Of a DNA stretch of 64,000 nucleotides, positions 1 to 62,418 are shown in pieces. Location: positions 1 through 64,000 of IMG/VR virus record IMGVR_UViG_3300046698_000515; one strand, given 5' to 3'. Below the pieces are notes generated by a model. The model ran no database searches, was not told where the DNA came from, and was given only the letters and a program-made list of their open reading frames with translations. Every line of letters starts with the position of its first letter. Within the stretch, counting starts at the first letter, position 1. Source of the DNA: a virus. The position numbers and the translations under genes were made by a program.

Positions 1-2
1 AA

Positions 3-16027: not shown

Positions 16028-16461
16028 ACTTTCACTCAGGCTATATTACAAAGAATCAAAAAAACGGAAAAACTATTTTTACTTTTGGAAGTAATTTAAG
16101 CGGAATTCATGGTAAAGGTTCTGCTTTAACAGCTAGAAAGCATTGGGGAGCTATATATGGTAGAGGTTCAGGTCATCAGGGACATTCTTATGCAATACCA
16201 ACTAAAGATCAAAAATTAAAAACATTACCTTTAAAGGATATACAGTACTATGTTGAACAGTTTATTGAACTTGCAACTACTAATCCTGATTTAAAATATC
16301 TAGTAGTAAGAATCGGTTGTATGCTTGCAGGATATAAAGATGAACAAATTGCTCCAATGTTTAAAGATGCTTCAGATAATGTTTATTTACCACCTGAATG
16401 GAAGCCTTATCTTCAACCTGAAAAAGTAGGCATAAACTTAATGTCTGATTTAATAGGTTAA
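16024..16461 (+). CDS. conserved phage protein (FGSNLSGIHGKG family)
   Basis: 145 residues. FTFGSNLSGIHGKGSAL then GAIYGRGSGHQGHSYAIPT is a signature of a widespread phage family of unknown function. The glycine-rich loops and the LKYLVVRIGCMLAGY strand recall macro-domain (ADP-ribose-binding) folds; I treat this as a structural guess. Confidence 0.75.
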   Translation: MNFHSGYITKNQKNGKTIFTFGSNLSGIHGKGSALTARKHWGAIYGRGSGHQGHSYAIPTKDQKLKTLPLKDIQYYVEQFIELATTNPDLKYLVVRIGCMLAGYKDEQIAPMFKDASDNVYLPPEWKPYLQPEKVGINLMSDLIG

Positions 16462-17150
16462 TCACCTATTCGAATTCGATTGTGGAATTGAGCAGGAAGT
16501 TCTTTACCTGTTTTAGCTGCTCTTAATTTTTGATCTGCAGATCCATGTAAACCTTTTTTAATTTCAGGACTTGTATGTTGCATTCTTAATAATTTTTGAT
16601 CTACATGAGGGTGTGCTTCATAAGGAATACCCATAAAATCCCAATATGAAAAAAGAATTTTTTGATGTTCAATAAATTCAAATTTATATTGTTGAATATT
16701 TTGACCTAATGATTTAAATAATTCATGCAATTGTTTTGAATAACTTTGAACTGTACTCTGAGTATTCCAAAATGAAATTGTTTTAGAGTCAATCCACAAT
16801 CTACCACTTACATCAAAAAAATCATCACGTAAAATTTCAGGTTCTATTTCAATTTGTTTTGAGTTAACAACAGACCACGGACAATTTCTAATTCTACTAA
16901 ATAATATTTCTTTATTTGCCTCATAATCGCCTATTATTGTTACCCTTAATTTTTTAAGATTGTTTTTGTTTAAAGAATTTTGACGTGTTGTGAGATACAA
17001 ATCATTATACATATCAACATGTCTACCAATTTTTTGCCAAAAAGACAGGCCTTTAATTATTCCTATAGTTATAGCATGAATGCTTTTATAAACTTGCCCG
17101 TTTACTGCATCAGGAGATTCTTTAAGAAAATATTGTTTAAATGATAGCAT
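16458..17150 (-). CDS. late protein with capsid-targeting-like tag
   Basis: 230 residues. The N-terminus LSFKQYFLKESPD fits the T4 internal-protein tag pattern: a short amphipathic stretch ending in LxE, the prohead protease cleavage site. A late promoter lies directly upstream (17158-17164). The rest is unknown. Predicted to be packaged in the head and trimmed after residue ~11 (inference). Confidence 0.7.
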   Translation of the reverse strand: MLSFKQYFLKESPDAVNGQVYKSIHAITIGIIKGLSFWQKIGRHVDMYNDLYLTTRQNSLNKNNLKKLRVTIIGDYEANKEILFSRIRNCPWSVVNSKQIEIEPEILRDDFFDVSGRLWIDSKTISFWNTQSTVQSYSKQLHELFKSLGQNIQQYKFEFIEHQKILFSYWDFMGIPYEAHPHVDQKLLRMQHTSPEIKKGLHGSADQKLRAAKTGKELPAQFHNRIRIGD

Positions 17151-36697: not shown

Positions 36698-36709
36698 TTC
36701 CATTTTTAT

Positions 36710-36783: not shown

Positions 36784-36784
36784 C

Positions 36785-36858: not shown

Positions 36859-36864
36859 AATTTA

Positions 36865-36933: not shown

Positions 36934-36945
36934 GCGTTTTCTTAA

Positions 36946-37018
36946 TGCCAGTATCAAGAAGTCTTGAGCATGATTTCATATGTCATTGCGCGATTTGGAG
37001 CATTACCATCTGCTGGCA
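36946..37018 (+). tRNA. tRNA with CAT anticodon (Met or Ile2)
   Basis: Acceptor TGCCAGT/GCTGGCA, D stem CAAG/CTTG, anticodon stem ATGAT/GTCAT with loop TTCATAT, T loop AGCATTA in a weak stem. Confidence 0.65.
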
Positions 37019-37073
37019 CTAATTTTATCAGAAATCATTTGCATTTTATATTAGGTAATAAGAAAATGAAAAT

Positions 37074-37352
37074 ATGAACGATGAAAACGAGTCTCCTAAA
37101 AGTGCATTAAGAATTTTTCTTGATGAAATAATTGATTCAAACAATGAGTTCATACACACAGAACTTGAAACATTACAAAAAACAATTTTAAACTTTTTAT
37201 GTACTAGTAAAGGAGTGATTAGAGAACACGATCGTCGGAAGATGATCTTAACAGTTAATCAAATAACAAAACTTGAAAAGCTTCAGCAATACATTTACAA
37301 TTCACTTCTGATTTATGAAGGTCAAGGAGTTGTGGGAATGTTAGAAAGATAA
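37074..37352 (+). CDS. hypothetical helical protein
   Basis: 92 residues. Acidic N-terminus, then long helices (ALRIFLDEIIDSNNEFIHTE). Two bases before the next gene. Unknown. Confidence 0.7.
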   Translation: MNDENESPKSALRIFLDEIIDSNNEFIHTELETLQKTILNFLCTSKGVIREHDRRKMILTVNQITKLEKLQQYIYNSLLIYEGQGVVGMLER

Positions 37353-37354
37353 AT

Positions 37355-37573
37355 ATGGATAATCCTAAAATTACAGTTCATAAAGGTGAAAAGAATCATT
37401 TTTTAAGGGTTCATCTTGATGCAGAACCTAGCGGGATGTTACGATTTGAATCTGAACATGCATATACTAAACCTGAAGCTGATTTTAGAGCAGTTATGCT
37501 TTCATCTCGATATGGTTTTGATAGGGATGAGTTACCAACACATCTGATAATCGAAGTATATCCAAAAGTATAA
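37355..37573 (+). CDS. small hypothetical protein
   Basis: 72 residues, beta-rich (HFLRVHLDAEPSGMLRFESE). Same operon as 37074. Unknown. Confidence 0.65.
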   Translation: MDNPKITVHKGEKNHFLRVHLDAEPSGMLRFESEHAYTKPEADFRAVMLSSRYGFDRDELPTHLIIEVYPKV

Positions 37574-37579
37574 TTTAAT

Positions 37580-37653
37580 GGGAGAGTAGTTTAAAGGTAG
37601 AACATGAATCCTACAAATTCGAGACGATGGATCGTTACCATTCTTTCCCACCA
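37580..37653 (+). tRNA. tRNA-Val(TAC), C33
   Basis: Acceptor GGGAGAG/CTTTCCC, anticodon stem TGAAT/ATTCG with loop CCTACAA (C33), T arm GATGG-ATCGTTA-CCATT, CCA encoded; GG in D loop. Confidence 0.85.
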
Positions 37654-37659
37654 TTTTAA

Positions 37660-37735
37660 CCCAATCAAACTAACCTAGTGGAAGTGCATACCCGAAGAGT
37701 ATGAAGGTCTGGAGCATAACCAGAGATTGGGACCA
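37660..37735 (+). tRNA. tRNA-Phe(GAA), C33
   Basis: Acceptor CCCAATC/GATTGGG, D stem ACT/AGT, anticodon stem CATAC/GTATG with loop CCGAAGA (C33), T arm TCTGG-AGCATAA-CCAGA, CCA encoded. Confidence 0.85.
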
Positions 37736-37739
37736 TTTT

Positions 37740-37813
37740 GTTCTATTCGTCTAAAAGTAGGATATTAACCTCTCAAGTTAAAAACACCAGTGCGATACTG
37801 GTATAGAACACCA
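37740..37813 (+). tRNA. tRNA-Glu(CTC)
   Basis: Perfect acceptor GTTCTAT/ATAGAAC, anticodon stem TTAAC/GTTAA with loop CTCTCAA, T arm ACCAG-TGCGATA-CTGGT, CCA encoded. A18/G55 elbow. Confidence 0.85.
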
Positions 37814-37823
37814 TATTTTAATA

Positions 37824-37851
37824 TTGATTTTAACTTAAAATATATTATACT
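37824..37851 (+). promoter_or_regulatory. sigma70-type promoter
   Basis: TTGATT at 37824-37829, 16-bp spacer, TATACT at 37846-37851, before ATG 37861. Confidence 0.65.
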
Positions 37852-37860
37852 TTATCTATA

Positions 37861-38241
37861 ATGGATTTATTCAAAAGTTCAGGTAAGTTAGAATATCGTA
37901 ATGAAGGATGGGTAACTCTCATACCTTCTTCATCTATTGGTAGATACTATAGATGGTGGGTTGAAAAAACAATTCATCAAAAAACCAACGTTCCAATGAA
38001 AGGCTGGCATATTACTGTTGTTGCTGGAAAGTATGAAGATTGCAGTTTACATCCAGCATGGAAAAAACATGAAAATGAAATAATTGAATTTGAATATGAT
38101 CATAATGTAGTTGATGATTTTACTTCTTATTGGCTTACTATTTACTCAAGACGACTTGAAGAGATCAGATTAGAGTTAGGATTGTATCCTTTTCCAAAAT
38201 TTCCGTTTCATTTAACGGTTGCAAATCTGAAGAATCTATAA
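37861..38241 (+). CDS. 2H phosphoesterase-like protein
   Basis: 126 residues. Two H-x-T motifs, WHITVVAGKYED (~residues 56-67) and FHLTVANLK (~116-124), with the spacing of the 2H phosphoesterase (LigT) superfamily. Phage members are sometimes annotated as RNA-repair proteins, and the anti-CBASS protein Acb1 is also a 2H enzyme. The substrate here could be a cyclic nucleotide or an RNA 2',3'-cyclic end. Early sigma70 promoter. Confidence 0.65.
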   Translation: MDLFKSSGKLEYRNEGWVTLIPSSSIGRYYRWWVEKTIHQKTNVPMKGWHITVVAGKYEDCSLHPAWKKHENEIIEFEYDHNVVDDFTSYWLTIYSRRLEEIRLELGLYPFPKFPFHLTVANLKNL

Positions 38242-38250
38242 ATAATATTA

Positions 38251-38322
38251 CGGAATGTAGCCTAACAGTGAGGCCCTAGTTTTGGGAACTAGTACAAGTG
38301 GGGGCAGCACCCACCATTCCGA
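38251..38322 (+). tRNA. tRNA-Pro(TGG)
   Basis: Acceptor CGGAATG/CATTCCG, D stem GCCT/AGGC, anticodon stem CTAGT/ACTAG with loop TTTGGGA, T arm GTGGG-GGCAGCA-CCCAC. A18/G55 elbow. Confidence 0.85.
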
Positions 38323-38336
38323 CACAATTTCGAATT

Positions 38337-38411
38337 GCTCTCAAAGTGTAATGGATTATGCACAACTGTCTACGGAACAGGAGGTTCTAGATTCGAATTC
38401 TGGTGGGAGCA
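38337..38411 (+). tRNA. tRNA-Arg(ACG)
   Basis: Acceptor GCTCTCA/TGGGAGC, D stem GTG/CAC with GG, anticodon helix CTGT/ACAG with loop CTACGGA, T arm CTAGA-TTCGAAT-TCTGG. Confidence 0.85.
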
Positions 38412-38419
38412 CACTTTAA

Positions 38420-38497
38420 GCTAGTGGATCGAGTAAGTAAACGAACCCGTCTGCAAAACGGTAAAAATAGTGGGAGCATTACCCACCTCTAGCTCCA
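38420..38497 (+). tRNA. tRNA-Cys(GCA)
   Basis: Acceptor GCTAGTG/CTCTAGC, anticodon helix CCGT/ACGG with loop CTGCAAA, T arm GTGGG-AGCATTA-CCCAC, discriminator T (the Cys identity base), CCA encoded. Confidence 0.85.
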
Positions 38498-38507
38498 ATT
38501 TTTCTTC

Positions 38508-38536
38508 TTGCAATCAATCAAAAATTAGTTTATATT
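38508..38536 (+). promoter_or_regulatory. sigma70-type promoter
   Basis: TTGCAA at 38508-38513, 17-bp spacer, TATATT at 38531-38536, before ATG 38546. Confidence 0.65.
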
Positions 38537-38545
38537 TAAAATAAT

Positions 38546-38673
38546 ATGAAAGCAGTAATTCAACAAAAAATTGAAGAATTAGTAACAATAGTTAGAGATC
38601 AATCACCTATGAAGTAGAAATGGGATTACCAAATGCATGTGATTGCAAGGATTATTTATGTACACAGAAATAA
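38546..38673 (+). pseudogene. small protein, apparent frameshift
   Basis: ATG 38546 gives MKAVIQQKIEELVTIVRDQS then a stop at 38615. A -1 shift near 38603-38608 continues as YEVEMGLPNACDCKDYLCTQK to a stop at 38671-38673. The two parts read as one ~42-residue protein ending in a CDCKDYLC cluster. A one-base indel is the simplest reading. Confidence 0.5.
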
Positions 38674-38879
38674 ATTTTAAAACTAAAAAACAACTTAAAG
38701 AAGCAGTTATACAAGGAGAAGAAATTCGTGTATATCAACCTAATGATGTATTTGATAGTCCTCAAGCAAAATCAAATTATTCTGGCCGTGCAGCTGTTGA
38801 AGGTCCTCATTATCCTGAAGCACATCGTTGGTATGCTTCAGTTGAAATTAAAAATGGATTAGTTGTCAAAGTAAAGTAG
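38658..38879 (+). CDS. small hypothetical protein
   Basis: 73 residues from ATG 38658 (MYTEINFKTKKQLKEAV...). Overlaps the end of the shifted upstream frame. Unknown. Confidence 0.6.
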   Translation: MYTEINFKTKKQLKEAVIQGEEIRVYQPNDVFDSPQAKSNYSGRAAVEGPHYPEAHRWYASVEIKNGLVVKVK

Positions 38880-38937
38880 AAAATTTCTCAAGACAACCGA
38901 TTGATTTTCTTTCAGAAGACTCAATAATATCATTACT

Positions 38938-39501
38938 ATGAAATTCAAAATCTTAGGTATATTATCGGCTGCAGTGCTTATCATAGCACTTGCAGGTCTC
39001 ACTACAAGTACTACAGGTTGCAAAACAATTACAAACCTTATAGGTACAAACACAACTCAGATTCAATCTGATGTAATGTCGGCAGCTACACAAGCTACAA
39101 CTTATGCTCTTAACCAAGATGCAAAATCACGTATTTATTTTGTTGCAGCGACTGATGTATTGGGTTCGTTTGTAAATTCAACAAATTCAAACCCAGCAAG
39201 TATTGCGGCTGCTCTAGCTGCATTACCTATTAGTCAATTGCAATCACCTGAAGCTCAATTAGCAATTACTGCAATTTTAGGAGTATATGATATAACATAT
39301 GCATCTTATGTACAGAATGCAGTTGATCAAAATGGTATGGCTAATGCTGTACTAAATGGATTAGTCCAAGGTATAAATGCTGGTTTAGCAGCAGTTCCAG
39401 CTCCTGTTGCATCTGCAAGCACAATTGCAAGTTTAACCAATTTAAAATCACCATACATGATTATTAAACCTGGTTTAGTTCCTCAACAAAAGAAGAAGTA
39501 A
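38938..39501 (+). CDS. lipoprotein, Ala-rich
   Basis: 187 residues. Signal peptide (ILGILSAAVLIIALAGL) and lipobox STTGC at residue ~28. The mature part is Ala/Leu/Ser-rich and helical. Surface-anchored phage lipoproteins often act in superinfection exclusion; there is no direct proof here. Followed by a strong terminator. Confidence 0.75.
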   Translation: MKFKILGILSAAVLIIALAGLTTSTTGCKTITNLIGTNTTQIQSDVMSAATQATTYALNQDAKSRIYFVAATDVLGSFVNSTNSNPASIAAALAALPISQLQSPEAQLAITAILGVYDITYASYVQNAVDQNGMANAVLNGLVQGINAGLAAVPAPVASASTIASLTNLKSPYMIIKPGLVPQQKKK

Positions 39502-39519
39502 ATTATTTTAAAAATCAAT

Positions 39520-39549
39520 AGCCTATGGTGAAAGCCATAGGCTTTTTTT
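39520..39549 (+). terminator. strong intrinsic terminator
   Basis: AGCCTATGG (39520-39528) pairs with CCATAGGCT (39535-39543), then T7. Confidence 0.85.
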
Positions 39550-39624
39550 GTGCTAGTATTAGTGCCCTCTCCTAAAGGGTAAACGTATAAATTGGATAAT
39601 GTAGGTTCGAGCCCTAGCACACCA
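39550..39624 (+). tRNA. tRNA-like, possible Arg(CCT), degenerate
   Basis: GTGCTAG/CTAGCAC ends and encoded CCA. A helix GCCCT/AGGGT holds loop CTCCTAA (CCT, Arg), but it follows the acceptor without room for a D arm. T-like loop TTCGAGC overlaps the acceptor pairing. Possibly a deleted or rearranged tRNA. Confidence 0.4.
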
Positions 39625-39632
39625 TTCTAAAT

Positions 39633-39706
39633 AGCCTAATGGCGCAAAACGGTAACGCAACTCGCTCTGAACGAGAAGATTAAAGGTTCGAATCCTTTTT
39701 AGGCTG
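39633..39706 (+). tRNA. tRNA-Gln(CTG)
   Basis: Acceptor AGCCTAA/TTAGGCT, D arm with GG, anticodon helix CTCG/CGAG with loop CTCTGAA, T arm AAAGG-TTCGAAT-CCTTT. Confidence 0.85.
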
Positions 39707-39844
39707 CACATTTTCATATCCATGTAATGGTACTTCTCGTCCCTTCATATAATCTCTTCTAGAAAGCTTCAACCATTCTTCATACCATTTCTCTTCCCAA
39801 AATTTCTTAGCACTAAAATCAAATTCTAACTGTTGGCTGTGCAT
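39680..39844 (-). CDS. small late protein, antisense into tRNA-Gln
   Basis: 54 residues on the minus strand (MHSQQLEFDFSAKKFWEEK...). ATAAATA (39850-39856) is six bases upstream. The last nine codons are antisense to the T arm of tRNA-Gln(CTG). Trp/Lys/Glu-rich; unknown function. Confidence 0.55.
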   Translation of the reverse strand: MHSQQLEFDFSAKKFWEEKWYEEWLKLSRRDYMKGREVPLHGYENVQPKKDSNL

Positions 39845-51449: not shown

Positions 51450-51812
51450 TTATTCATCATGAATTCTTTTTAATGTTTCGGGATTAGGAATATAATCTGA
51501 ATAAAAGCTAACTGAAAGTAATTCTTTAATTGCAAGTTCTATTGGTAAATATATTAATACAGAAGGCTTATTTTTTGTAGCTGTATTAAATAATTCAATA
51601 ATTACCAAATTTTTTGTTCTTTCTACTACAATACCTTTACCTTTTGTAGGTGGATGTATATCATTTCCAAATATTGATGATAATAATGTCGATGTTTCTG
51701 AATCAAGAGGTAATGATTTTTCATGTGTTTTATACTCACAAATGGTGCCAACAGGAAATAAATTTTTATTTCTCTGATATGCTTCAAAAATTAATTGTGA
51801 GTCTTTATTCAT
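51450..51812 (-). CDS. LIFEAY-tag protein (probable internal head protein)
   Basis: 120 residues. N-terminal tag MNKDSQLIFEAY. The pattern L-I-F-E|A fits the (L/I)xE cleavage rule of T4-type prohead protease, and the tag resembles T4 capsid-targeting sequences in length and position. The body is a beta-rich domain. Adjacent to two further tagged genes with ATG/stop overlaps. Confidence 0.75.
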   Translation of the reverse strand: MNKDSQLIFEAYQRNKNLFPVGTICEYKTHEKSLPLDSETSTLLSSIFGNDIHPPTKGKGIVVERTKNLVIIELFNTATKNKPSVLIYLPIELAIKELLSVSFYSDYIPNPETLKRIHDE

Positions 51813-52087
51813 TATTTTAAATATTCTGCAGAAAATATTAATTTATTATTGTCTGAAAATTCACCAACACCTTCTTCTTCCCAATTACTTTTTATTAATC
51901 CTTTTTGTGCTAAATCATATAAAATATCATCCATACCTGGACAATTTCCACCATAAACAGGTTTTGCTAATTTACATAATTTTTCATGTGTTATTCCTTC
52001 ATTTTGTTTAATCAAATTCAACACATCATTTTCATATGTTCTGTGCTTTTTATAAGCTTCAAAAATTAATTGCGAATCTTTATTCAT
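51812..52087 (-). CDS. LIFEAY-tag protein
   Basis: 91 residues. Same first 12 residues (MNKDSQLIFEAY) as the downstream gene, then a winged-helix-like domain (VLNLIKQNEGITHEKLCKLA). Overlaps neighbours by one base. Predicted to be packaged with DNA; a DNA-binding role is a guess. Confidence 0.75.
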   Translation of the reverse strand: MNKDSQLIFEAYKKHRTYENDVLNLIKQNEGITHEKLCKLAKPVYGGNCPGMDDILYDLAQKGLIKSNWEEEGVGEFSDNNKLIFSAEYLK

Positions 52088-52440
52088 TATAGAACACTAC
52101 CACGTTTATAGAGTGCTTTGGTCCCAGTACCGGGTTTTACAACAGGACCATCAGAAGAATGCATATCTACAAGTTCTTGTGCTAATTCCTTAATAACTTC
52201 AAATTTTGCATCTTGTTCTTGAGGATTACCAGGATTATGCTCAAGTTGAACAATAGTTTGTAAAATTTCATTACCTATTGTAACTTCTCGTTTTTCAGCA
52301 GGATTTGACATATCTGTCTCATCATGTTGAGGAGTTTCAGGAGCTGGTTGTTCACCTTCTTCTTTTATAACTTTTGTTCTTGATTGTTTAAAGGCTTCGA
52401 ATATTAAGCGATCGTCTCGTTTCATAAGTGGTATTGTCAT
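52087..52440 (-). CDS. LIFEAF-tag protein, first gene of the minus operon
   Basis: 117 residues. The tag RDDRLIFEAFKQSR is at residues 7-20, after a short extension (MTIPLMK). The body is acidic and Pro/Glu-rich, then helical. Starts at the bidirectional late promoter 52439-52450. Confidence 0.7.
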   Translation of the reverse strand: MTIPLMKRDDRLIFEAFKQSRTKVIKEEGEQPAPETPQHDETDMSNPAEKREVTIGNEILQTIVQLEHNPGNPQEQDAKFEVIKELAQELVDMHSSDGPVVKPGTGTKALYKRGSVL

Positions 52441-52450
52441 AAATATTTAT
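52439..52450. promoter_or_regulatory. bidirectional late promoter
   Basis: The palindrome ATAAATATTTAT carries ATAAATA on both strands, between divergent tagged genes (minus 52440, plus 52458). Confidence 0.6.
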
Positions 52451-52457
52451 TAGTAAT

Positions 52458-54203
52458 ATGATTGATTTTGAAGAATATTGTAAGAATTCACTTTTATTAG
52501 AATACAACCAGGCAATAATTGTAATGCTAATAGAAAAATTTAAGAAAGAGCGAAAAAATCTGACAGATCAACAAATATACTATTATATTAATAGATTTGA
52601 TCAGGTAAGAAATTCTCCTAGATTTGTTGAAATTGTAAGTGCTACTTATCCAGCTATTACTAATCCAAAAGATATTTTGCAATTTACATTCAGACAAATA
52701 GAATCTATTGTTGACCAATTTCCACAACGCGAAAAACAAACTCCTACACCGCAAAATAATTTATCACAAGAAGATCCTTATAAAGATTTACAATTAGTTT
52801 CTAGTGCAAATGGATTAAAAATATATCACGCAACAAGTCAACAAGGATGTATCGCTATTAATAAGGGTATATTTGATAGAACATATAATTTTTGTGTTTC
52901 TACTAGTAGTGCAGGCAATCTTTATAATAATTATAGATTTAGTGGTAAAGGATATTCATTTTATTTTGTTTATGATCCTTCATTAAATAAGGCAAATATT
53001 CTACATTTATTAGTTTTACAAATCAGTCCTTCTGGAAAAATAATATTTACTACCGCTGCTAATACAGGAAACAGCCAAATTTCTTGGAAAGAATTACTTA
53101 AAATGCAGCCAAAATTAAAGGGGCTTGAAAGTGTTTTTTCGTTTCATCCTTATACACGAGAAGAGAAAATAATAAAAGCAATTGAAAGTAGATCACCTAC
53201 ACAATTTGGTAGACTTAGCTATGATGATAAGAAAATGTATATACAATTAGGTGGTGAAATAAATGTAATCAATTATAGAGCTTTACCAGGAGAATTAAAA
53301 TTAGTGTATATTAATCATTTACCTTTCACTAAACGGTTAAAAGAAAATATAGTTAACTGGATTAAACAGCATGAACCAAATAATTGGGCACGTTTACAAG
53401 AATTATTACATTTAGAAGAGTTTAAAAATTTATCACAAATTGGAATACTACGTAAATTGAAATTTTTTAATAATCCATGTTTTGCTAAATTAGCTTATAG
53501 AAACTTAGGCATTAATCCAATAACAATAAAATTAGGAAGGAGTACCGTTATTAATGACCAATGTTGTTTAATTTTTCCGTATAAAGATGCTGAACAGTTA
53601 TTATCAACAGTAACACAAAACAACTTAAATAAAATACAAGAAAGATTTAAAATAACATGGGATACTATTTATACATATCCATTATTAGTATTTAATTATC
53701 ACTATGCTGCCGCAGCATATGTACTAAAGTGGAGTTATTTTATATTCGGTAAAACAAGAAAAGGTAAACAAGTGATTTATGCAAGAAAAGAAACGTGGTC
53801 ACCGGAAGCGGGGCAAACTTATTTATACACTGAAGAAGGAAAAGGTATGGCAACAGATTATGTAAAACCAACAGAATATTATAGAGGTAATGTAAATCCA
53901 GTAAAATATCCTAAAGGACGTAAACTAAATTTAGAAAATTTTGAAGATTTTAGTAAGAAAACTCTTTTATTAGAATTTAATGAGGCAACTATAAATGAAA
54001 TTGCAGATGCAGCACCAGTTGTAGAACCAGCAGAACCAACTACAATTCCTCGTCCAGTTAAACCCGCTACACCACAACCAAGGCCTCAACATCCTATGCA
54101 ACCAACACGACCTAATATTAAACCGCGTCCTAAAGCAGAAGATGATAATCCTGATGTTGAATTATTTTACCGATTGAGAGGAATTACATATGGGAACAAT
54201 TAA
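52458..54203 (+). CDS. tagged internal head polyprotein
   Basis: 581 residues. The N-terminal tag FEEYCKNSLLLEYN (residues 4-17) is followed by a ~470-residue domain containing LKIYHATSQQGCIAINKG and NFCVSTSSAGNLYNNYRF with FYFVYD, a module repeated in the next protein. A second tag NFEDFSKKTLLLEFNEAT sits at residues ~493-510, then a Pro-rich tail. Both tags end in LLE|. This suggests cleavage into at least two products during head maturation. The function of the body is unknown; it is large enough for an injected enzyme. Confidence 0.75.
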   Translation: MIDFEEYCKNSLLLEYNQAIIVMLIEKFKKERKNLTDQQIYYYINRFDQVRNSPRFVEIVSATYPAITNPKDILQFTFRQIESIVDQFPQREKQTPTPQNNLSQEDPYKDLQLVSSANGLKIYHATSQQGCIAINKGIFDRTYNFCVSTSSAGNLYNNYRFSGKGYSFYFVYDPSLNKANILHLLVLQISPSGKIIFTTAANTGNSQISWKELLKMQPKLKGLESVFSFHPYTREEKIIKAIESRSPTQFGRLSYDDKKMYIQLGGEINVINYRALPGELKLVYINHLPFTKRLKENIVNWIKQHEPNNWARLQELLHLEEFKNLSQIGILRKLKFFNNPCFAKLAYRNLGINPITIKLGRSTVINDQCCLIFPYKDAEQLLSTVTQNNLNKIQERFKITWDTIYTYPLLVFNYHYAAAAYVLKWSYFIFGKTRKGKQVIYARKETWSPEAGQTYLYTEEGKGMATDYVKPTEYYRGNVNPVKYPKGRKLNLENFEDFSKKTLLLEFNEATINEIADAAPVVEPAEPTTIPRPVKPATPQPRPQHPMQPTRPNIKPRPKAEDDNPDVELFYRLRGITYGNN

Positions 54204-57200
54204 TTTTGAAACATTTTATCTTCTCGAATCTGTTTTTGATGATGCTTACACCCATTGGAAGATTGAAGCGGGTGTTGATCCTAGTGGAATAACAGGTGAC
54301 ACTATAGAAGAATACATCGACACATTCAAGATATTAAAACAACGTAACTTTCTAAAAGGATCAGAAGCAGATATTTCTCCATGGATTAAGAAACCTTTCA
54401 GTGATTTTAAAGCCTTTGTTGATGCTAAAAGTAAACAGCACGAGCAGAAAAGCGCCATCAAACGAACAGAAGGAGATATTGAACGCGTATTTGAGAATGA
54501 ATTTTGCACGATAGTCTGTCCTAATACATTTGAAGCTTCGAAGAAATACGGAGCGGGAACTAAATGGTGTATAAGCGGAAATGTTATTCAACACTGGAAG
54601 AGCTATACAGAGAAGGGTACAAAATTCTACTTCATATTACCGAAGAATAATACACATAAATTAGCTGTGGCCGTTTATCAGAATAATTCTTCTAAAGAAG
54701 TGTATAATGAGCTCGATCAGACTATATCTATACAAAAATTTACTGCGCTATTAAAGCAGTATGCTATTCCAAAGACAGTATTATTTACGAACGAAATGGA
54801 TTGGGATAAATGGCTATTACAGCACAAGCACACTATTAATCCTGATGGAAGTGTAGATATAGATGGAGATATGAATCTATCTGAAATGAAGCTGAAGGAG
54901 CTTCCATTTAAGTTTGGAAAAGTAACAGGAAATTTTTACTGTTACAGCAATCAGCTCACGTCACTTCAAGGAGCACCCTCGAAGGTAAGAGGTGATTTTT
55001 ACTGTTCTTACAATCAGCTCACGTCACTTCAAGGAGCACCTTCGGAGGTAAGAGGTGATTTTTACTGTCATTGCAATCAGCTCACGTCGCTTCAAGGAGC
55101 ACCCTCGGAGGTAAGAGGTGATTTTTACTGTTCTGACAATCAGCTCACATCACTTCAAGGAGCACCTTCGGAGGTAGGAGGAGTTTTTTACTGTAATTAC
55201 AATCAGCTCACGTCACTTCAAGGAGCACCCTCGGAGGTAAGAGGTGATTTTTACTGTTCTGACAATCAGCTCACGTCACTTCAAGGAGCACCCTCGAAGG
55301 TAAGAGGTGATTTTTACTGTCATAGCAATCAGCTCACGTCGCTTCAAGGAGCACCTTCGGAGGTAAGAGGGGATTTTTACTGTTTTAGCAATCCAAAATT
55401 AAAACAAGCAGATATTGATAAATTAAAACAATTTTATAAAAATCAAAAAATGAAGAAGAAAAATATAACTGAAGCATTTGAATTAGGAGATAAACCGGAC
55501 ATGTTCCATTCTTCTCGACAGAAGCTTTACAAGAAACCATTACCTGTCGAAGAAACTTTTCCTGATTTAGGAGATACAACAAAAATGAAAAATTTTTCAG
55601 ATTTTTATAACGAAAGACTCTTATTAGAGTTTAATGATGTAACTGTTAAGAAACTTATAGAAAAGTTTAAAACGGAGCAAAATAGTTTATCTAATGAAAA
55701 TATTCTTTATTATTTACAACGTTTTGAACAATTAAAAAATAGTACTAAATTTGTTGAATTAATCAAAGATAAATTTCCAGAAATAACTATTCAAAATGAT
55801 ATATTTCAGTATACCTTTAAACAATTAGAATATGGAGTAGATCAATTTCCTAAAAATAATACGCTACAACAAGCGCTACAACAAGTAAGCCCACAACAGA
55901 ATCTAATCTTATTAGGAGAAAATGAAGGATTAAAAGTATATTATGCTAAAAATGAGCAGGGCTGTATTGAAGTTAATAGTGGTGTGTTTGGTAATACAAA
56001 ACCTTATTCATTTTGTGTTACACGGAAACATAATGGAATGTATGGAAGCTATCGATATGGAAAACATGAATCTTCTTTTTATTTTTTATATGATTCAACA
56101 TTACGTGTAACAGATATTAAACATCTGTTAGTAATACAAGTTACTAAATGTAAAACATTTATTCTAACTTATGCAAATAATACCTATAATGAAGAAATAA
56201 CATTAGAAGAATTATTAAAAATACAACCTAAATTAGCCCCTATTATTAATTTATTAACACATCAGAAATATAATGCTGAAGAAGCAATAGCTAAATGGGT
56301 TGCTAATCATGAATATTATAGTAGTATGCGTACTTATGAAGAGAAAAAAATGTGGTTAGAAATGCGCCCTCGCGGCTTAATACTTCAAGATTTTAAAACA
56401 TTGCCAGATGACTTAAAGAATTTATGGTGTAATGTATATGATGATGGTACGTTTTCCTATATAAATATAAATGAAATATTTAAATATATTTTTTTACACG
56501 AGCCAGCTTTAACAAAAAGATTTTTGCAAAGATTTTATAGACATGAATTTCATAAATTATGTTTTGAAGAGTTAGAGAAAATTTTACCTGCTAATTTAAA
56601 GCAAGAAGTAAAGGAAAATTATTTTGGTAAAGAAAATCTTGAAAAAATAAACACGTTAACAGATCCAATTGAACTTTTTGAACTATTAGCTAAACTTAAT
56701 TATGCTACACTCAATTATGACACAGTTAATAGTAAATTCCCAAAAATTAGTATAATTAGAAATAATAAAAAACTAGTAAATAAGAGGGCGGCAATTGAAA
56801 CAGATTATAATAAGATAGAAAAATATTTACCATCTATAATACAGAGAAATATAAATAACATTAAAGGTAAGTTTAATATAAAATTTAATAAAATTTATCT
56901 TATACCTAACAAACCGTCACGATATGATATCTCACCTGCCTGGCTTTATTATATTTTAGGAACTACAAAAAAAGGAAAAGATGTATTATATTATAGGCGC
57001 CAGGGAATAAACCCTCAATCAACATTTTCAAAATTTTTTATTAATGACAAAATGTATAAACTTGTGAATTTATTCAATAAAGATAATTTTGAACAAATGA
57101 AAAAAATAACAGAAGCATTTGAATTAGGAGATAAACCGGACATGTTCCATTCTTCTCGACAGAAGCTTTACAAGAAACCATTACCTGTCGAAGAAACTTT

Positions 57201-58248
57201 TCCTGATTTAGGAAATACTGCACAGAGATATATTGAATTTATCACAAGCGAAAGCTATAAAAAAGCTGTTGAAAGAATGGAAAGATACTTAGGAATGCAA
57301 GCAACAGGTGAGAATTTACCGCAAGCAATCCAACTAATTTTTAGCTCATACATGCAAGTAATACAATTTCAACAAGGGCATGAGAAACAATTAGCAAAAT
57401 TAGCATTGCAAACAGTTTTAGAATTAGAAGAGTTTAAATTATTTAAAGATCTATGTGATAAAGGATACATTATAGTCGATGCTCAAATTGACACTCCTAA
57501 CTTAGATAATGCATTATTACAAAGTGAAAAGCCAAAAGATAAGAAACAGTTGACTAAAACTGAATTAGCAAATGTTAAAGCAGCACAACTCTTTACTTCT
57601 ACGGATGAAAATGTATTGAAGAGGAAGTTTGCTAATATGATTTCACAAGGTAATGCAGTAAATAAACTTTATTTGTTTCAATTAGCATCTGATAAGTTAA
57701 ACGCAATGCATCCTAGATTAGTTAATTTATATGGCATTACTGCATTAGGAGCACAAATAGCGTATTATGCACAACCTAATATTAAACTAAGTCGTGAAAT
57801 GTTAGAAATGGCTCAAGTAGGATCTGAAGAAGTTACTCCTGAAAAGAATGGACCTGAAAAGAATGGAGTTTATAAGATTACTGCTCGTGCATCACTCTTT
57901 CCTTACTTAATTCATGAAATAGTTAAAGGATTTTATGATTATCTGTCAATGGATTTAGTACCTCAAGAAGAACTAGATAAGGAGACTATTGAGGATGAGA
58001 TGGTAGATATAATGTCAGGTCCTGAATTATACAGCAAAATAACACAATTTATCCCTCAAGATAAGAACTACCTCACTCCGCTCGTGTATAAACTACTAAT
58101 CAACAAACCTATAGCAACTATTAAACAAGTACTATATGGAGGAGGACAGGCCCAGAATATCTATAAGGCTTTAATAGGTGAAGCAGAAGCAGCAATGAAG
58201 AAGTTTAACGAACCAGAAGAACCTACGGATTATAATCCTAAATATTGA
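54190..58248 (+). CDS. giant tagged polyprotein with LRR-like repeats
   Basis: 1352 residues, overlapping the previous gene by 14 bp. Tag NFETFYLLESVF at residues 5-16. Module A (~17-245): KYGAGTKWCISG with KGTKFYFILP. Module B (~247-401): eight 20-residue repeats (NQLTSLQGAPSEVRGDFYC). Linker KNITEAFELGDKPDMFHSS at ~424. Second tag NFSDFYNERLLLEFND at ~466, then a module paralogous to the body of 52458-54203 (~480-965). A second linker copy at ~970. Final module (~1000-1352) with LIHEIVKGFYDYLS, found as a conserved protein in other T4-like phages. The internal tags and linkers suggest protease processing. Confidence 0.8.
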   Translation: MGTINFETFYLLESVFDDAYTHWKIEAGVDPSGITGDTIEEYIDTFKILKQRNFLKGSEADISPWIKKPFSDFKAFVDAKSKQHEQKSAIKRTEGDIERVFENEFCTIVCPNTFEASKKYGAGTKWCISGNVIQHWKSYTEKGTKFYFILPKNNTHKLAVAVYQNNSSKEVYNELDQTISIQKFTALLKQYAIPKTVLFTNEMDWDKWLLQHKHTINPDGSVDIDGDMNLSEMKLKELPFKFGKVTGNFYCYSNQLTSLQGAPSKVRGDFYCSYNQLTSLQGAPSEVRGDFYCHCNQLTSLQGAPSEVRGDFYCSDNQLTSLQGAPSEVGGVFYCNYNQLTSLQGAPSEVRGDFYCSDNQLTSLQGAPSKVRGDFYCHSNQLTSLQGAPSEVRGDFYCFSNPKLKQADIDKLKQFYKNQKMKKKNITEAFELGDKPDMFHSSRQKLYKKPLPVEETFPDLGDTTKMKNFSDFYNERLLLEFNDVTVKKLIEKFKTEQNSLSNENILYYLQRFEQLKNSTKFVELIKDKFPEITIQNDIFQYTFKQLEYGVDQFPKNNTLQQALQQVSPQQNLILLGENEGLKVYYAKNEQGCIEVNSGVFGNTKPYSFCVTRKHNGMYGSYRYGKHESSFYFLYDSTLRVTDIKHLLVIQVTKCKTFILTYANNTYNEEITLEELLKIQPKLAPIINLLTHQKYNAEEAIAKWVANHEYYSSMRTYEEKKMWLEMRPRGLILQDFKTLPDDLKNLWCNVYDDGTFSYININEIFKYIFLHEPALTKRFLQRFYRHEFHKLCFEELEKILPANLKQEVKENYFGKENLEKINTLTDPIELFELLAKLNYATLNYDTVNSKFPKISIIRNNKKLVNKRAAIETDYNKIEKYLPSIIQRNINNIKGKFNIKFNKIYLIPNKPSRYDISPAWLYYILGTTKKGKDVLYYRRQGINPQSTFSKFFINDKMYKLVNLFNKDNFEQMKKITEAFELGDKPDMFHSSRQKLYKKPLPVEETFPDLGNTAQRYIEFITSESYKKAVERMERYLGMQATGENLPQAIQLIFSSYMQVIQFQQGHEKQLAKLALQTVLELEEFKLFKDLCDKGYIIVDAQIDTPNLDNALLQSEKPKDKKQLTKTELANVKAAQLFTSTDENVLKRKFANMISQGNAVNKLYLFQLASDKLNAMHPRLVNLYGITALGAQIAYYAQPNIKLSREMLEMAQVGSEEVTPEKNGPEKNGVYKITARASLFPYLIHEIVKGFYDYLSMDLVPQEELDKETIEDEMVDIMSGPELYSKITQFIPQDKNYLTPLVYKLLINKPIATIKQVLYGGGQAQNIYKALIGEAEAAMKKFNEPEEPTDYNPKY
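54940..55392 (+). repeat. eight 60-bp repeats coding LRR-like units
   Basis: Near-identical 60-bp units (AATCAGCTCACGTCACTTCA plus AGGAGCACC...), with most differences in the codons for two or three exposed residues (SY, HC, SD, NY, HS). In frame within the polyprotein gene. Confidence 0.9.
55471..55577 (+). repeat. 107-bp direct repeat, copy 1
   Basis: Nearly identical to 57112-57218 (one or two changes near the 3' end). Encodes the linker EAFELGDKPDMFHSSRQKLY and onward in the polyprotein. Confidence 0.9.
57112..57218 (+). repeat. 107-bp direct repeat, copy 2
   Basis: Second copy of the linker-coding repeat. High nucleotide identity over 107 bp implies recent duplication or gene conversion. 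Confidence 0.9.
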
Positions 58249-58880
58249 CCAGGGTGATCGTATTTTTCTAAATCATGTTTAAATAACTGATTTAATGGAC
58301 CATCAGGATCATATGTTGTTTGTAATGTCCAAGTTCCTTTTCTACCAGTATAAATTTTTGTTGCAATAGTATCTTCACCACTTCCCCAGGCATAATTTGC
58401 ATTTTGTGCAGCTTGTGCTCCAAATTTTTTCTTAATTATCGTTTCTTGTGCCTTACATACTCTATTTTGTAATTCCATATCATGTTCATCTGGTTCATCT
58501 TCTGGAACAGAAGTTGGAATTTTTTCTTTGAGAGGTTTTTTGCTTCGATAATAAGCTTCAAATATTTTAACAGATTCACCTAACGCTCCATAAGAAGGGC
58601 CATTATGTTCATTTTCAATTCCTGGTGATTGAGGCGGAACTTTCTTACTTAAAGGAGTTTTAATAATACTTTGTTGTGCTTCAGGGCTACCGGATGCTTT
58701 TGTGACAAAATCCAATATCATTTTAAATATTTTTTCAAGTTCAGTAGAACCACCCTCTCCTTCTTCTTGAGGATTATTCATGTCACTAGGAAAGCTTCCT
58801 GGATTTGCTTCTGTAAAAAGTTTATCAGGTATATTAGCTTTTTTGTAAGCTTCAAATATTAAATGTGATTCATTATTCAT
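58230..58880 (-). CDS. LIFEAY-tag protein with internal tag
   Basis: 216 residues. Tag MNNESHLIFEAYKK at residues 1-14 and a second, ESVKIFEAYYRSKKP, at ~103-117, so two modules may be released by cleavage. First module acidic, second with many Lys and Trp. Ends in the 3' end of the giant polyprotein gene (convergent, 19-bp overlap). Confidence 0.75.
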   Translation of the reverse strand: MNNESHLIFEAYKKANIPDKLFTEANPGSFPSDMNNPQEEGEGGSTELEKIFKMILDFVTKASGSPEAQQSIIKTPLSKKVPPQSPGIENEHNGPSYGALGESVKIFEAYYRSKKPLKEKIPTSVPEDEPDEHDMELQNRVCKAQETIIKKKFGAQAAQNANYAWGSGEDTIATKIYTGRKGTWTLQTTYDPDGPLNQLFKHDLEKYDHPGQYLGL

Positions 58881-59455
58881 TTAATTGTATAACCAAGTTC
58901 TTTACAAGCATATTTAGCAGTTCTGATAGCATCTTGTCCTTCCAACCCTAACCTATGTGCTTTATCAATAGCTAAAGTCCAACAATTTTCAGATTCACTG
59001 CCACCTTCAGCTGATGCATCTGCTAAAAACCTTTCAACATGTCGAATGATTTTATTAACATGAAAAACATTGATACAACGAGACATACCTGGATCACGAA
59101 TTACAATTGTACGCCTAGACCCTGGAAATTTTATCCGGTCACCAACTCGAGAAACTCGATAATTTATTGGTTTTGCTGAACGTAAACTAGCTCGTCCACT
59201 TTTTATTATTTGTAAAAGACCGGAAAGACTTATTTCTTTGTTTATGTCTGTTTCTAATTCTCTAATTGTAACAACTCCATTTTGATTAGCATCAATAGTA
59301 TAATCATGACCTAACATTAAAAGCTGATAACCTGGTCTAATATTTGATTCAGTTTGTTTATCTACCATTTTTGGTTGTTTATCCCAAGATCTCGGCACAT
59401 CTATTGCTTCTTTAATATAAGCTTCAAATATAAGATGTGTGTCATTATTCATCAT
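58877..59455 (-). CDS. LIFEAY-tag protein
   Basis: 192 residues. Tag MMNNDTHLIFEAYIKEA. The central region (RVSRVGDRIKFPGSRRTIVI) is basic and beta-rich; the C-terminus has NCWTLAIDKAHRLGLEGQDA. Overlaps genes on both sides by 4 bp. Unknown activity. Confidence 0.75.
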   Translation of the reverse strand: MMNNDTHLIFEAYIKEAIDVPRSWDKQPKMVDKQTESNIRPGYQLLMLGHDYTIDANQNGVVTIRELETDINKEISLSGLLQIIKSGRASLRSAKPINYRVSRVGDRIKFPGSRRTIVIRDPGMSRCINVFHVNKIIRHVERFLADASAEGGSESENCWTLAIDKAHRLGLEGQDAIRTAKYACKELGYTIK

Positions 59456-59706
59456 GATGGCTTGTAATTTATTTGTGCGTTATTTGTAAAAGCTGTTATT
59501 ACATTTCCTTCTTGTTTAACAAGTGAAAGAATAACTAATGCTTTAATGAATGGTGTAACATCTTTTCCAGAAAAGTTTTTTAAAAGATTAGCAACATCAG
59601 TTGATTTGTGCCGCTGAATGAAATTAAAAATAGTTTGTAAAGTGAAGAGTACATCGTTTGCTCCACCATTATATGCTTCAAATATTAAACGAGAATCATT
59701 ATTCAT
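59452..59706 (-). CDS. LIFEAY-tag protein
   Basis: 84 residues. Tag MNNDSRLIFEAYNGG, then a small helical domain (FIQRHKSTDVANLLKNFSG) that may be winged-helix. Part of the tagged operon. Confidence 0.75.
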   Translation of the reverse strand: MNNDSRLIFEAYNGGANDVLFTLQTIFNFIQRHKSTDVANLLKNFSGKDVTPFIKALVILSLVKQEGNVITAFTNNAQINYKPS

Positions 59707-59709
59707 AAA

Positions 59710-60060
59710 TTATTGTTGACGTGTTCCATTTCCAGGTTGTAAAGTTGTATTAGTATTTGCTATTGGAGGTTGAGAAGCTGCAGCACCAGGAGCTCTATCA
59801 TCACGCTGATTAGTTATTTGAGTTGTATCTAAACCATATTTTGAAACTAATCTATCAACTTCTGCATCAGGCATAGTTGAAACATTTCCAAGAAAAGGAG
59901 CAAGTCCAAGTTCAACACATTTTTTACCAAACACTTCTAAGCGACGTCGAGCATCAAACATTCCATTTTCATTTGGTGAATATTGAATACTAAAGAGTTT
60001 AGCATCATGAAACCTACTATCTTGATATGCTTCAAATATTAGATATGAATCTTTATTCAT
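59710..60060 (-). CDS. LIFEAY-tag protein
   Basis: 116 residues. Tag MNKDSYLIFEAYQDSR. C-terminus disordered (Pro, Ala, Asn, Thr). The middle ARRRLEVFGKKCVELGLAPF may be a short helical domain. Confidence 0.75.
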   Translation of the reverse strand: MNKDSYLIFEAYQDSRFHDAKLFSIQYSPNENGMFDARRRLEVFGKKCVELGLAPFLGNVSTMPDAEVDRLVSKYGLDTTQITNQRDDRAPGAAASQPPIANTNTTLQPGNGTRQQ

Positions 60061-60063
60061 GAA

Positions 60064-61224
60064 TTATTGCGGGCCTTCCAAAGGAGGAATGTTAGTTTTA
60101 GAAACTGGACCTTCCACTTCAACTGCTTGAGCTTCAGGTTCATTTTTAACTGGTGTTAATTGATAACCTGAAATTGCATACATTGTTCTACCATCTTCAA
60201 AAGTTATATCATAATATTCATAATCTTTATCTGGTTCATCACCTTCAGCAGCACATTGACATGCACAACAATCAATAGTAGCTATTTTTCCTTCATATTG
60301 TTCTAGTACTTCTTGCCAATTTTTAATATCACTTTCTTTTCCAGGATGATCATTAGAAGAAGGTTCGTCAAAAGGACTATCATCACCAAATTCAGAAGAT
60401 GAAATATCATTCATGTTAAAAGTTACCTTTGTTCCATCAGGAATTGCTTGTCTTGATCCTTCATTTCCTTCACCCGGATCACCTTCCGCAGCACTAGAAA
60501 CAAGAGAATGTAATTGTTTTTCTTCCTTTGGGGTATACGGTGTTTGCCCAGGTATCATTTTATAATCTTCTTTGTACATATGTTTATATGCTTCGAATAT
60601 ACATGATTCATCGTTTTTATTCAACGAAACATTTTCTCTGAATTTGTGAAGTTTTGTTTTAGGAATGTTACCTGCCCCGGTTTTTTTGTCATTCCATTTC
60701 TTTCCATGGGGAAGAACTACATTCTTATTATGAAGGTGTCTATCATCATTTTCACCAATACCAGTTTGACGTTCTTGAGTATAATTAATTTCACCCCCTT
60801 TAGCCTTTTTAGCATCTATTTCAGTAGGCTTAATCTGTGTTGAATCTTTACGACGTTTATTTTCTGGAACTTTTGTAAGATTAATTCCTGTATAAACACG
60901 TGTGAGAAGTTTTGTAGGCACGGTCATGAAGTCAATATATAACCCAGGAGCAGTCTCACGAGTTATATCAGCCAAATTTGCTAATTCGTTCTCATAATTA
61001 CCATAACTACCTTGAACAGAAGTTGGCCATGCTTTGGTTGCACTTATACGTAGAGTGTCACCTGATGTAATAAATTCTTGAATCTTATTAGCATAGTCAG
61101 GATTTTCTTGTACCCATGAATTTTTTTCCCAACCTTTTTTAAAATTAACGGGATCACCAGTTAAAAATGCACTTCGTTGAAAACGAACCATTGTTGATTC
61201 TAATAGTTTAGTAAATTTTGACAT
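60064..61224 (-). CDS. tagged internal head protein, two-module
   Basis: 386 residues. The N-terminus SKFTKLLESTMVRF fits a tag ending LLE|S. An internal tag NKNDESCIFEAYKHMYK lies at ~201-217, separating an N-terminal alpha/beta module from an acidic, Cys-containing C-terminal module (IDCCACQCAAEGDEPD). The late promoter ATAAATA (61241-61247) lies upstream, making this the first gene of the five-gene operon. Confidence 0.75.
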   Translation of the reverse strand: MSKFTKLLESTMVRFQRSAFLTGDPVNFKKGWEKNSWVQENPDYANKIQEFITSGDTLRISATKAWPTSVQGSYGNYENELANLADITRETAPGLYIDFMTVPTKLLTRVYTGINLTKVPENKRRKDSTQIKPTEIDAKKAKGGEINYTQERQTGIGENDDRHLHNKNVVLPHGKKWNDKKTGAGNIPKTKLHKFRENVSLNKNDESCIFEAYKHMYKEDYKMIPGQTPYTPKEEKQLHSLVSSAAEGDPGEGNEGSRQAIPDGTKVTFNMNDISSSEFGDDSPFDEPSSNDHPGKESDIKNWQEVLEQYEGKIATIDCCACQCAAEGDEPDKDYEYYDITFEDGRTMYAISGYQLTPVKNEPEAQAVEVEGPVSKTNIPPLEGPQ

Positions 61225-61854: not shown

Positions 61855-62418
61855 ATGGCAAGAAAAACAAAACAATGTTCACAGTGCAAAAAAATAAAGA
61901 AGATTTCTTCTTTTAATTGGTGTGTGTATAAAAATGGACAACAATATCCTCAAGCTAGATGTAAAATATGTAATTCTGCAAGCTCAACAAAATGGATAAA
62001 AGAACATTTGTTAAATGAAAATCCAGATATCGCTTTAAAAGCTACTATAAATCAATTGTTTTACTATTCAAAAACAAACGCCTATAATAAAAAACTTGAT
62101 TTTAATCTAACAACAGAATTTCTATTAGAATTATACAAAAAACAAAATGGAAAATGTTTTTATACAGGAGCTCAAATGAAATTAAATGGCATAGGGCTTA
62201 ATAAAGATCCTCTTTATATATCATTAGACAAAGTAACCCCAGAACTTGGATATATTCAAGGTAACGTTGTATTTTGTTGTCTCGGTATAAATTATTTAAA
62301 AGGTGTTCATAGTGTAGATGTATTATATAATACATTATTTACATTTTTTGATGGATGTATAATCACAAATAAATTACCAGAAATCATAAAGGAAAAATTA
62401 GAATGTCACAACAATTAA
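61855..62418 (+). CDS. HNH-type homing endonuclease between gp25 and gp6
   Basis: 187 residues. N-terminal zinc part (CSQCKKIKK, CKICN), C-terminal nuclease KQNGKCFYTGAQMKL, then ISLDKVTPELGYIQGNVVFC and CLGINYLKG, an HNH variant seen in phage mobile genes. Inserted between structural genes, overlapping the gp6 start by 16 bp. Confidence 0.8.
   Translation: MARKTKQCSQCKKIKKISSFNWCVYKNGQQYPQARCKICNSASSTKWIKEHLLNENPDIALKATINQLFYYSKTNAYNKKLDFNLTTEFLLELYKKQNGKCFYTGAQMKLNGIGLNKDPLYISLDKVTPELGYIQGNVVFCCLGINYLKGVHSVDVLYNTLFTFFDGCIITNKLPEIIKEKLECHNN

What the first reader, a model, noticed from the sequence alone, without database searches (positions are those of the whole stretch)
51450..61224. A family of proteins with capsid-targeting tags ending in (L/I)xE
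Seven genes begin with a near-identical tag (MNKDSQLIFEAY and variants); three more have LLE or LKE versions (16458-17150, 52458, 54190). All are under late promoters or in late operons. The pattern fits T4 capsid-targeting sequences removed by prohead protease. They are good candidates for proteins packaged in the head and injected with DNA, each with a different body.
Basis: partly seen in the sequence, partly recalled or inferred. Interest (0 to 1): 0.85.

Follow-up and report, generated by a model that had tools for sequence, protein, structure and literature searches.

The report
Phage head-packaging tags and tag-jointed polyproteins
An uncultured relative of phage T4 puts the same ten-residue cut-off tag on many unrelated late proteins, very probably to load them into its head for delivery into the bacterium, and it also strings several such proteins into single long chains with a tag at every joint, as if they were cut apart during head assembly.

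Summary
Seven genes at 51450-60060 begin with a tag ending LIFE|A(Y/F). Related LxE|S or LxE|[YFA] versions start 16458-17150, 52458, 54190, 60064 and two genes beyond the window. The tag has the length of the T4 IPII/IPIII capsid-targeting sequence and shares M1, I8, E10 and A11 with it. It is not chance: at least 118 viral DNA stretches carry it, nearly all at a start codon, in front of more than 25 unrelated bodies. A slightly stricter pattern has no match in 257 Gb of bacterial and archaeal contigs. Of 20 tagged records, 15 encode a T4 gp21-type protease that itself carries LxE sites. This record stops just before the expected gp21 gene.

ORF 54190-58248 joins modules that occur as separate tagged genes elsewhere, with an ITE|A or LLLE|F site at each joint. 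One joint is shared, base for base, with a relative that carries a different body after it. In the family of the last module the P1 glutamate is invariant.

Best reading: T4-type packaging tags, plus a new variant, tag-jointed polyproteins whose modules are exchanged at the cleavage site. Cleavage, packaging and injection are inferred, not shown.

The parts
51450..51812 (-). tagged gene 1 (120 aa); tag MNKDSQLIFE|A at 51783-51812
51812..52087 (-). tagged gene 2 (91 aa, weak winged-helix resemblance below cut-off); tag MNKDSQLIFE|A at 52058-52087
52087..52440 (-). tagged gene 3 (117 aa); MTIPL-MKRDDRLIFE|AF; a start at the second Met (52425) would give a 10-residue tag
52438..52445 (+). CATAAATA, late-promoter-like, ahead of 52458; an ATAAATA also lies ahead of 52440 on the minus strand
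52458..54203 (+). two-module protein: module B behind MIDFEEYCKNSLLLE|Y (52458-52502), then module D behind LENFEDFSKKTLLLE|F (53931-53975)
54190..58248 (+). candidate polyprotein (1352 aa): A + leucine-rich repeats, joint peptide, B, C
54190..54228 (+). N-terminal tag MGTINFETFYLLE|S of module A
54859..55456 (+). 63-nt direct repeats coding for leucine-rich repeats, after module A
55450..55473 (+). joint 1: MKKKNITE|A; identical DNA in L264, where a different body follows
55458..55577 (+). direct repeat copy 1 (120 nt, 98% identical to 57099-57218), flanking module B
55585..55629 (+). joint 2: MKNFSDFYNERLLLE|F, start of module B
57097..57114 (+). joint 3: MKKITE|A, start of module C; aligned with the start codon of stand-alone module C genes
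57099..57218 (+). direct repeat copy 2
58230..58880 (-). tagged gene with two sites: MNNESHLIFE|A (58851-58880) and internal ESVKIFE|AY (site at about 58557)
58877..59455 (-). tagged gene (192 aa); MMNNDTHLIFE|A at 59423-59455
59452..59706 (-). tagged gene (84 aa); MNNDSRLIFE|A at 59677-59706
59710..60060 (-). tagged gene (116 aa); MNKDSYLIFE|A at 60031-60060
60064..61224 (-). two-module protein: MSKFTKLLE|S (61198-61224), then internal NKNDESCIFE|AY (60592-60621); N-terminal half is a stand-alone gene in L142
61241..61248 (-). CATAAATA, late-promoter-like, ahead of the 61224 to 58230 operon
16458..17150 (-). outlying gene with MLSFKQYFLKE|S, preceded by CATAAATA at 17158-17165

Best explanation
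The tags are capsid-targeting sequences of the T4 kind. Late in infection each tagged precursor binds the prohead core through its first ~10 residues. The phage's gp21-type serine protease then cuts after the Glu of (L/I)xE, removes the tag, and leaves the body inside the head to be ejected with the DNA. The shared tag with unrelated bodies, and the gp21 gene in tagged relatives, are shown. Targeting, cleavage and ejection are inferred from T4. In this phage some precursors (52458, 54190, 58230, 60064) are concatenates of two to four such units with a protease site at each joint. The most likely reading is that they are packaged as one chain and cut into separate proteins in the prohead, and that units are gained or swapped by recombination at the tag-coding joint.
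For: Tag position and selection. Same length and key residues as T4 IPII/IPIII MKTYQEFIAE|A; residues 4 and 7 serve targeting and 8 and 10 processing in IPIII (PMC9026906). At least 118 viral stretches, over 25 body clusters; no match for a slightly stricter pattern in 257 Gb of cellular contigs; reversed-pattern control 0 of 21 records against 21 of 21. PF03420 protease in 15 of 20 tagged records, E from 2e-30 to 2e-37; the protease has L[LI]VE near its N-terminus and GILE|S near its C-terminus in all 15. The probable gp22 begins MEKNISQVLKE|AT or similar. Window portal is PF07230 and 51-60% identical to those of the relatives; gene order places gp21 just past the record's end. ATAAATA sits at -11 to -18 in most tagged genes and ahead of nearly all gp21 genes. 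Polyprotein: module C is a separate gene in nearly all of 47 distinct relatives, and its P1 Glu is invariant in 23 of 23 sequences of 21-38% identity to the window copy, while propeptide length runs from 5 to 43. Modules A, B and D also occur as separate genes with a tag-like N-terminus. L264 joins the same joint to a different body, with DNA identity stopping just after ITE|AFE. L188 joins D-C-A and L190 joins D-C. A 120-nt repeat flanks module B.
Against: No protease on this 73.6-kb record, so co-occurrence is shown only in relatives. The exact T4 late octamer is not enriched. Many relatives' major capsid proteins have CFE|A or CME|A around where T4 is cut, so the shell site is unclear. Module C has F at P3 in some relatives (FRE|A). 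The record is a metagenome assembly with repeats. No peptide data exist here for any of these phages.
Confidence: 0.87

Rival explanations
1. The fused proteins are not cut at their joints. They are ordinary multidomain packaged proteins, and the internal tags are fossil remains of gene fusion.
For: The module C fusion in 54190 is unusual, since C is a separate gene in nearly all 47 distinct relatives, and a young fusion could keep its tags passively: the 120-nt repeat is still 98% identical.
Against: LLLE and the surrounding M-F-LLLE-N residues are kept between two B copies of only 36% overall identity, one N-terminal and one internal. The joint ITE|A is kept in L264 as well as in the window. 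The internal IFEAY copies in 58230 and 60064 are intact. Any exposed LxE site inside a prohead should meet the protease.
Confidence: 0.27
2. Internal methionines at the joints are extra translation starts, so the modules are also made separately from one ORF.
For: Three joints in 54190 carry an in-frame Met at the tag start, and GGAG lies about 11 nt before the Met of module B. T4 gene 21 has an internal start.
Against: The joints in 52458, 58230 and 60064 have no Met at the tag start, and the Met codons at 55450 and 57097 have no obvious ribosome site.
Confidence: 0.15
3. The tag is another kind of shared N-terminal signal, such as a translation enhancer, an export signal or a binding peptide, unrelated to head assembly.
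For: Only sequence is available, and the very short distance between promoter core and start codon could favour particular start-proximal codons.
Against: Selection acts on the peptide and not on the codons. The motif is charged and lacks a signal-peptide core. It co-occurs with gp21 and matches the probable gp22 N-terminus and T4 IPIII. Within the N-terminal region of module C proteins the P1 Glu is the only residue besides the start that stays fixed.
Confidence: 0.06
4. The fused ORF 54190-58248 is a metagenome misassembly across repeats.
For: The region holds near-identical repeats: two A+LRR copies, the 120-nt repeat and 63-nt repeats.
Against: L264, an independent contig, has the same A+LRR to NITE|AFE joint, and L188 and L190 are independent fusions of the same module types. 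Every joint is in frame.
Confidence: 0.08

Closest known systems
T4 internal proteins IPI/IPII/IPIII and their capsid-targeting sequence (CTS)
   Same: 10-residue N-terminal tag, shared by different bodies, ending in (F/L)IxE|A; late genes; a gp21 (S77) protease in the same phage group (PMC9026906, PMC3012670).
   Different: The sequence is MNKDSxLIFE instead of MKTYQEFIAE. More tagged genes sit side by side (five tandem genes in one operon), and several are fused with a tag at each joint, which is not described for T4 in the papers read.
T4 Alt and gp21 (processing at both ends)
   Same: Extra LxE sites away from the N-terminus. L055 ends in IFE|AYLKNQTDK and L071 in LINE|AYYASKHKR, like C-terminal propeptides (PMC9026906).
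   Different: In the window the second site is followed by a whole further module, not by a short tail.
phiKZ/SPN3US ejection proteins
   Same: Near-identical short N-termini on diverged proteins (gp53/gp54) cut by a prohead protease after xxE (PMC5694885).
   Different: Their motif is S/A-x-E and the propeptides are often over 100 residues; here it is (L/I)xE with short tags.
Polyvalent proteins of phages and conjugative elements
   Same: Several domains in one chain that is likely packaged, likened by the authors to viral polyproteins (PMC5512222).
   Different: There, release is proposed to be by built-in peptidase domains; here by the separate head protease at tag-like joints. No shared domain was detected.

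Membership tests
T4-type capsid-targeting sequence / internal head protein | short (about 10-19 residue) N-terminal tag shared by unrelated bodies | tested here: met
   10 residues in most; over 25 body clusters among relatives.
T4-type capsid-targeting sequence / internal head protein | tag ends in (L/I)xE at the cleavage position, with residues matching IPIII 8 and 10 | tested here: met
   I8 and E10 (and A11) identical to IPII/IPIII.
T4-type capsid-targeting sequence / internal head protein | gp21-type (S77) prohead protease in the same phage | tested here: inconclusive
   15 of 20 tagged relatives have PF03420; none on this record, which ends before the expected locus.
T4-type capsid-targeting sequence / internal head protein | core and shell proteins of the same phage carry matching sites | tested here: inconclusive
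   Protease and probable gp22: sites present. Major capsid protein: YIDE|S near the start; the T4-like site is CFE|A or [LIV]xE|A, not uniform. All in relatives, not in this record.
T4-type capsid-targeting sequence / internal head protein | late expression | tested here: met
   By sequence only: ATAAATA ahead of all four tagged operon heads, and at the same place before gp21 genes in relatives. The exact TATAAATA octamer is not enriched.
T4-type capsid-targeting sequence / internal head protein | protein present in the head, cut after Glu, ejected into the host | not testable with these tools
   Needs virion proteomics.
T4-like myovirus | gp20-type portal with gp6/gp25 baseplate genes | tested here: met
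   Portal PF07230 E=4e-95; gp25-like baseplate wedge; gp6-like gene shared with relatives, named from position and my own knowledge.
phiKZ/SPN3US-type head processing | S/A-x-E motif and long propeptides | tested here: not met
   Motif is (L/I)xE, tags about 10 residues.
Cleavable polyprotein | modules exist as separate proteins elsewhere and every joint carries a protease-type site | tested here: met
   Full for 54190: A, B and C. D of 52458. Only the N-terminal half of 60064 has a known stand-alone relative; 58230 has two sites but no known separate relatives.
Cleavable polyprotein | actual cleavage at the joints | not testable with these tools
   Needs peptides or an in-vitro digest.

The most novel reading that the evidence does not exclude
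Phages of this group encode packaged cargo as tag-jointed polyproteins. The head-assembly protease acts as their processing enzyme, and the tag-coding joint is the site where cargo modules are exchanged between phages, so a phage can change its injected set by swapping bodies behind a constant tag.
Probability: 0.6. Interest if true: 0.75.

Novelty: new variant of a known kind. Interest (0 to 1): 0.66.

Why it matters
Injected phage proteins are hard to find because their bodies evolve fast and match nothing. This tag is a handle for listing them from raw sequence: one degenerate pattern gave at least 118 stretches in viral contigs, and a slightly stricter one gave none in cellular genomes. 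If the joints are cut, tailed phages use their head protease to process polyproteins of cargo, which I did not find described in the papers searched. The joint with identical DNA up to the cut and a different body after it suggests how cargo is exchanged.

Tried and rejected
Nearest neighbours among phage records by DNA: none. Portal query and module C query against viral contigs by peptide patterns: none; the relatives were reached through the tag pattern and then an alignment of module C instead. Exact T4 late octamer as a promoter test: not enriched, replaced by ATAAATA position analysis. Pfam and PHROGs on window bodies: no function; only module A and the repeats match PHROGs, of unknown function. 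AlphaFold2 of module B (mean pLDDT 74.5, pTM 0.54) and module C (pLDDT 73, pTM 0.77), followed by Foldseek: no PDB match at E<=0.001, and one unnamed uncultured-phage protein for C. The thought that module B is an ADP-ribosyltransferase like Alt was not supported by these searches. Tag against the annotated phage collection by tblastn: no match, but a 21-residue query has little power. Gene 46611 has LLEES near its start, but its homologues vary there, so it is left out. Tag pattern in cellular genomes: none, so no host is suggested.

Full report
What the window is. The window is positions 1-64000 of a 73,565-base IMG/VR virus record, probably a fragment. The remaining 9.6 kb was fetched as L001. 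It carries a gp25-like and a gp6-like baseplate gene, a T4-type portal (PF07230, E=4e-95) interrupted by an intein, and a head-tail adaptor. The portal is 51-60% identical to portals of uncultured phages found below, and about 31% to the nearest annotated phages, which are T4-like cyanophages.

The observation. Seven minus-strand ORFs start with M-N-[KN]-[DE]-x-x-LIFE-A-[YF] or a close variant. Variants start 16458-17150 (FLKE|S), 52458 (LLLE|Y), 54190 (YLLE|S), 60064-61224 (KLLE|S), and beyond the window 67898-68338 (LILE|AY) and 72499 onward (LLRE|AYQLILE|S). The bodies are mostly unrelated by BLAST. The exceptions are a weak 51450/59452 similarity and the shared modules of 52458, 54190 and 72499. 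In this record 15 of 109 genes have [LI]xE[AS] with the Glu at residues 6-20, against 2.5 expected from interior stretches and never more than 8 in 2000 draws. Among the six most alike tags the LIFEAY codons differ at 0.59 per synonymous site and 0.018 per non-synonymous site.

How widespread it is. Nearly all are in frame 1-5 residues from a start codon. The bodies fall into more than 25 clusters, the largest with 57 members of about 300 residues; one single body is endolysin-like. The same kind of pattern hits 21 of 21 records tested, and its reversed form 0. These records were chosen for the tag, so it is the zero control that counts. A slightly stricter version anchored at ATG has no match in 257 Gb of bacterial and archaeal contigs. 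The window's record is the densest of the 21, with six exact copies within 8.3 kb.

Link to the T4 system. T4 IPII and IPIII begin MKTYQEFIAE|A. The present tag, MNKDSQLIFE|A, has the same length and the same residues at positions 1, 8, 10 and 11. In IPIII residues 4 and 7 serve targeting and 8 and 10 serve processing (PMC9026906). Of 20 tagged records, 15 encode a PF03420 protease (E from 2e-30 to 2e-37). All 15 proteases keep an L[LI]VE near the start and GILE|S near the end, and the ELNHP and GMSSRALG blocks. The order in relatives is portal, adaptor, TnsA-like endonuclease, gp21, probable gp22, gp23. The window's record shows portal and adaptor, then a tagged gene, then its end, so truncation explains the missing protease. 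The probable gp22 (named by position, no family match) starts MEKNISQVLKE|AT or similar in many relatives. The major capsid protein has no uniform LxE where T4 is cut, which is a loose end.

Expression. The exact T4 late octamer is not enriched. The core ATAAATA begins at -11 to -18 in most tagged genes of other phages, is present within 60 nt in 62 of 96, and stands in the same place before nearly all gp21 genes; 65 of 303 ORFs of at least 100 residues in the head-gene loci have it. In the window it precedes all four tagged operon heads and 67898, against 6 of 96 other genes, and those six include gp25 and the adaptor.

Polyproteins. ORF 54190-58248 reads: tag and module A with leucine-rich repeats; MKKKNITE|A; MKNFSDFYNERLLLE|F and module B; MKKITE|A and module C. 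Module C is a separate gene of mostly 380-470 residues in nearly all of 47 distinct relatives, lying within a few kilobases of the portal in 37 loci. The start Met of the closest separate genes aligns with the Met at the joint, and the Glu before the joint is invariant in 23 of 23 sequences although the propeptide ranges from 5 to 43 residues. Module A is also the start of the gene at 72499 (86% identical). Module B is the N-terminal module of 52458 and a separate gene in L260, L261 and L263, each with a tag-like start. The C-terminal part of 52458 resembles a separate 94-residue gene (about 40% identity) that lies next to module C in relatives. A 120-nt direct repeat, 98% identical and in frame, flanks module B and marks it as an insertion. 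In L264 the same A+repeat unit runs through the identical joint NQKMKKKNITE|AFE into an unrelated body: DNA identity is complete for about 48 nt up to the joint and lost right after it. L188 has D-C-A and L190 has D-C in one ORF. ORF 60064 joins a unit that is separate in L142 to a second unit behind CIFE|AY; L055 has the first unit ending in IFE|AYLKNQTDK. ORF 58230 holds two tags.

Mechanism and confidence. Shown by sequence: a conserved, selected tag on unrelated late-type genes; its match to the T4 CTS; the gp21 protease and matching sites in relatives; modules joined, and in one case swapped, at tag sites. Inferred: targeting to the core, cutting after Glu, retention in the head, ejection into the host. 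I put 0.87 on T4-type capsid targeting and about 0.6 on real processing of the joined proteins. The body functions stay open: family and fold searches gave nothing usable.

Noticed in passing
L001:8998-11496 (record 68998-71496): The portal gene carries an intein of about 215 residues (PF14890, E=1.5e-10) between portal residues ~374 and ~589; the relatives' portals aligned here are uninterrupted at that point.
   Followed up: partly
L001:12499-13565 (record end): The record breaks off inside the leucine-rich repeats of a second A+LRR gene that is 86% identical to 54190; the break looks like an assembly stop at a repeat.
   Followed up: partly
window 1-6000: G+C is 0.42-0.45 here against about 0.30 in most of the window.
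   Followed up: no
window 27961-39707: A tmRNA gene (28803-29209) and about a dozen tRNA genes, one predicted with a four-base anticodon (ccca, 32944-33018).
   Followed up: no
window 61855-62418: An HNH-like ORF (by eye, not tested) sits between the gp25-like and gp6-like baseplate genes, possibly a homing endonuclease.
   Followed up: no
loci L002-L119 and L135-L149: The ATAAATA core begins only 11-18 nt before the start codon of tagged genes and of gp21, which would leave almost no 5' leader if transcription starts as in T4.
   Followed up: partly
window 15201-15626: Another minus-strand gene with TATAAATA just ahead and an LLTE|T sequence near residue 24, a possible further packaged protein.
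   Followed up: no
L142:9286-9744 and homologues: In relatives the gene between adaptor and gp21 matches TnsA-like endonuclease N-terminal domain (PF08722, E=5e-19).
   Followed up: no
L107, tagged gene of 184 aa (truncated), minus strand: A tagged protein whose body resembles an endolysin/lysozyme (phrog_7, E=7e-10), which would be a muralytic enzyme carried in the head.
   Followed up: partly
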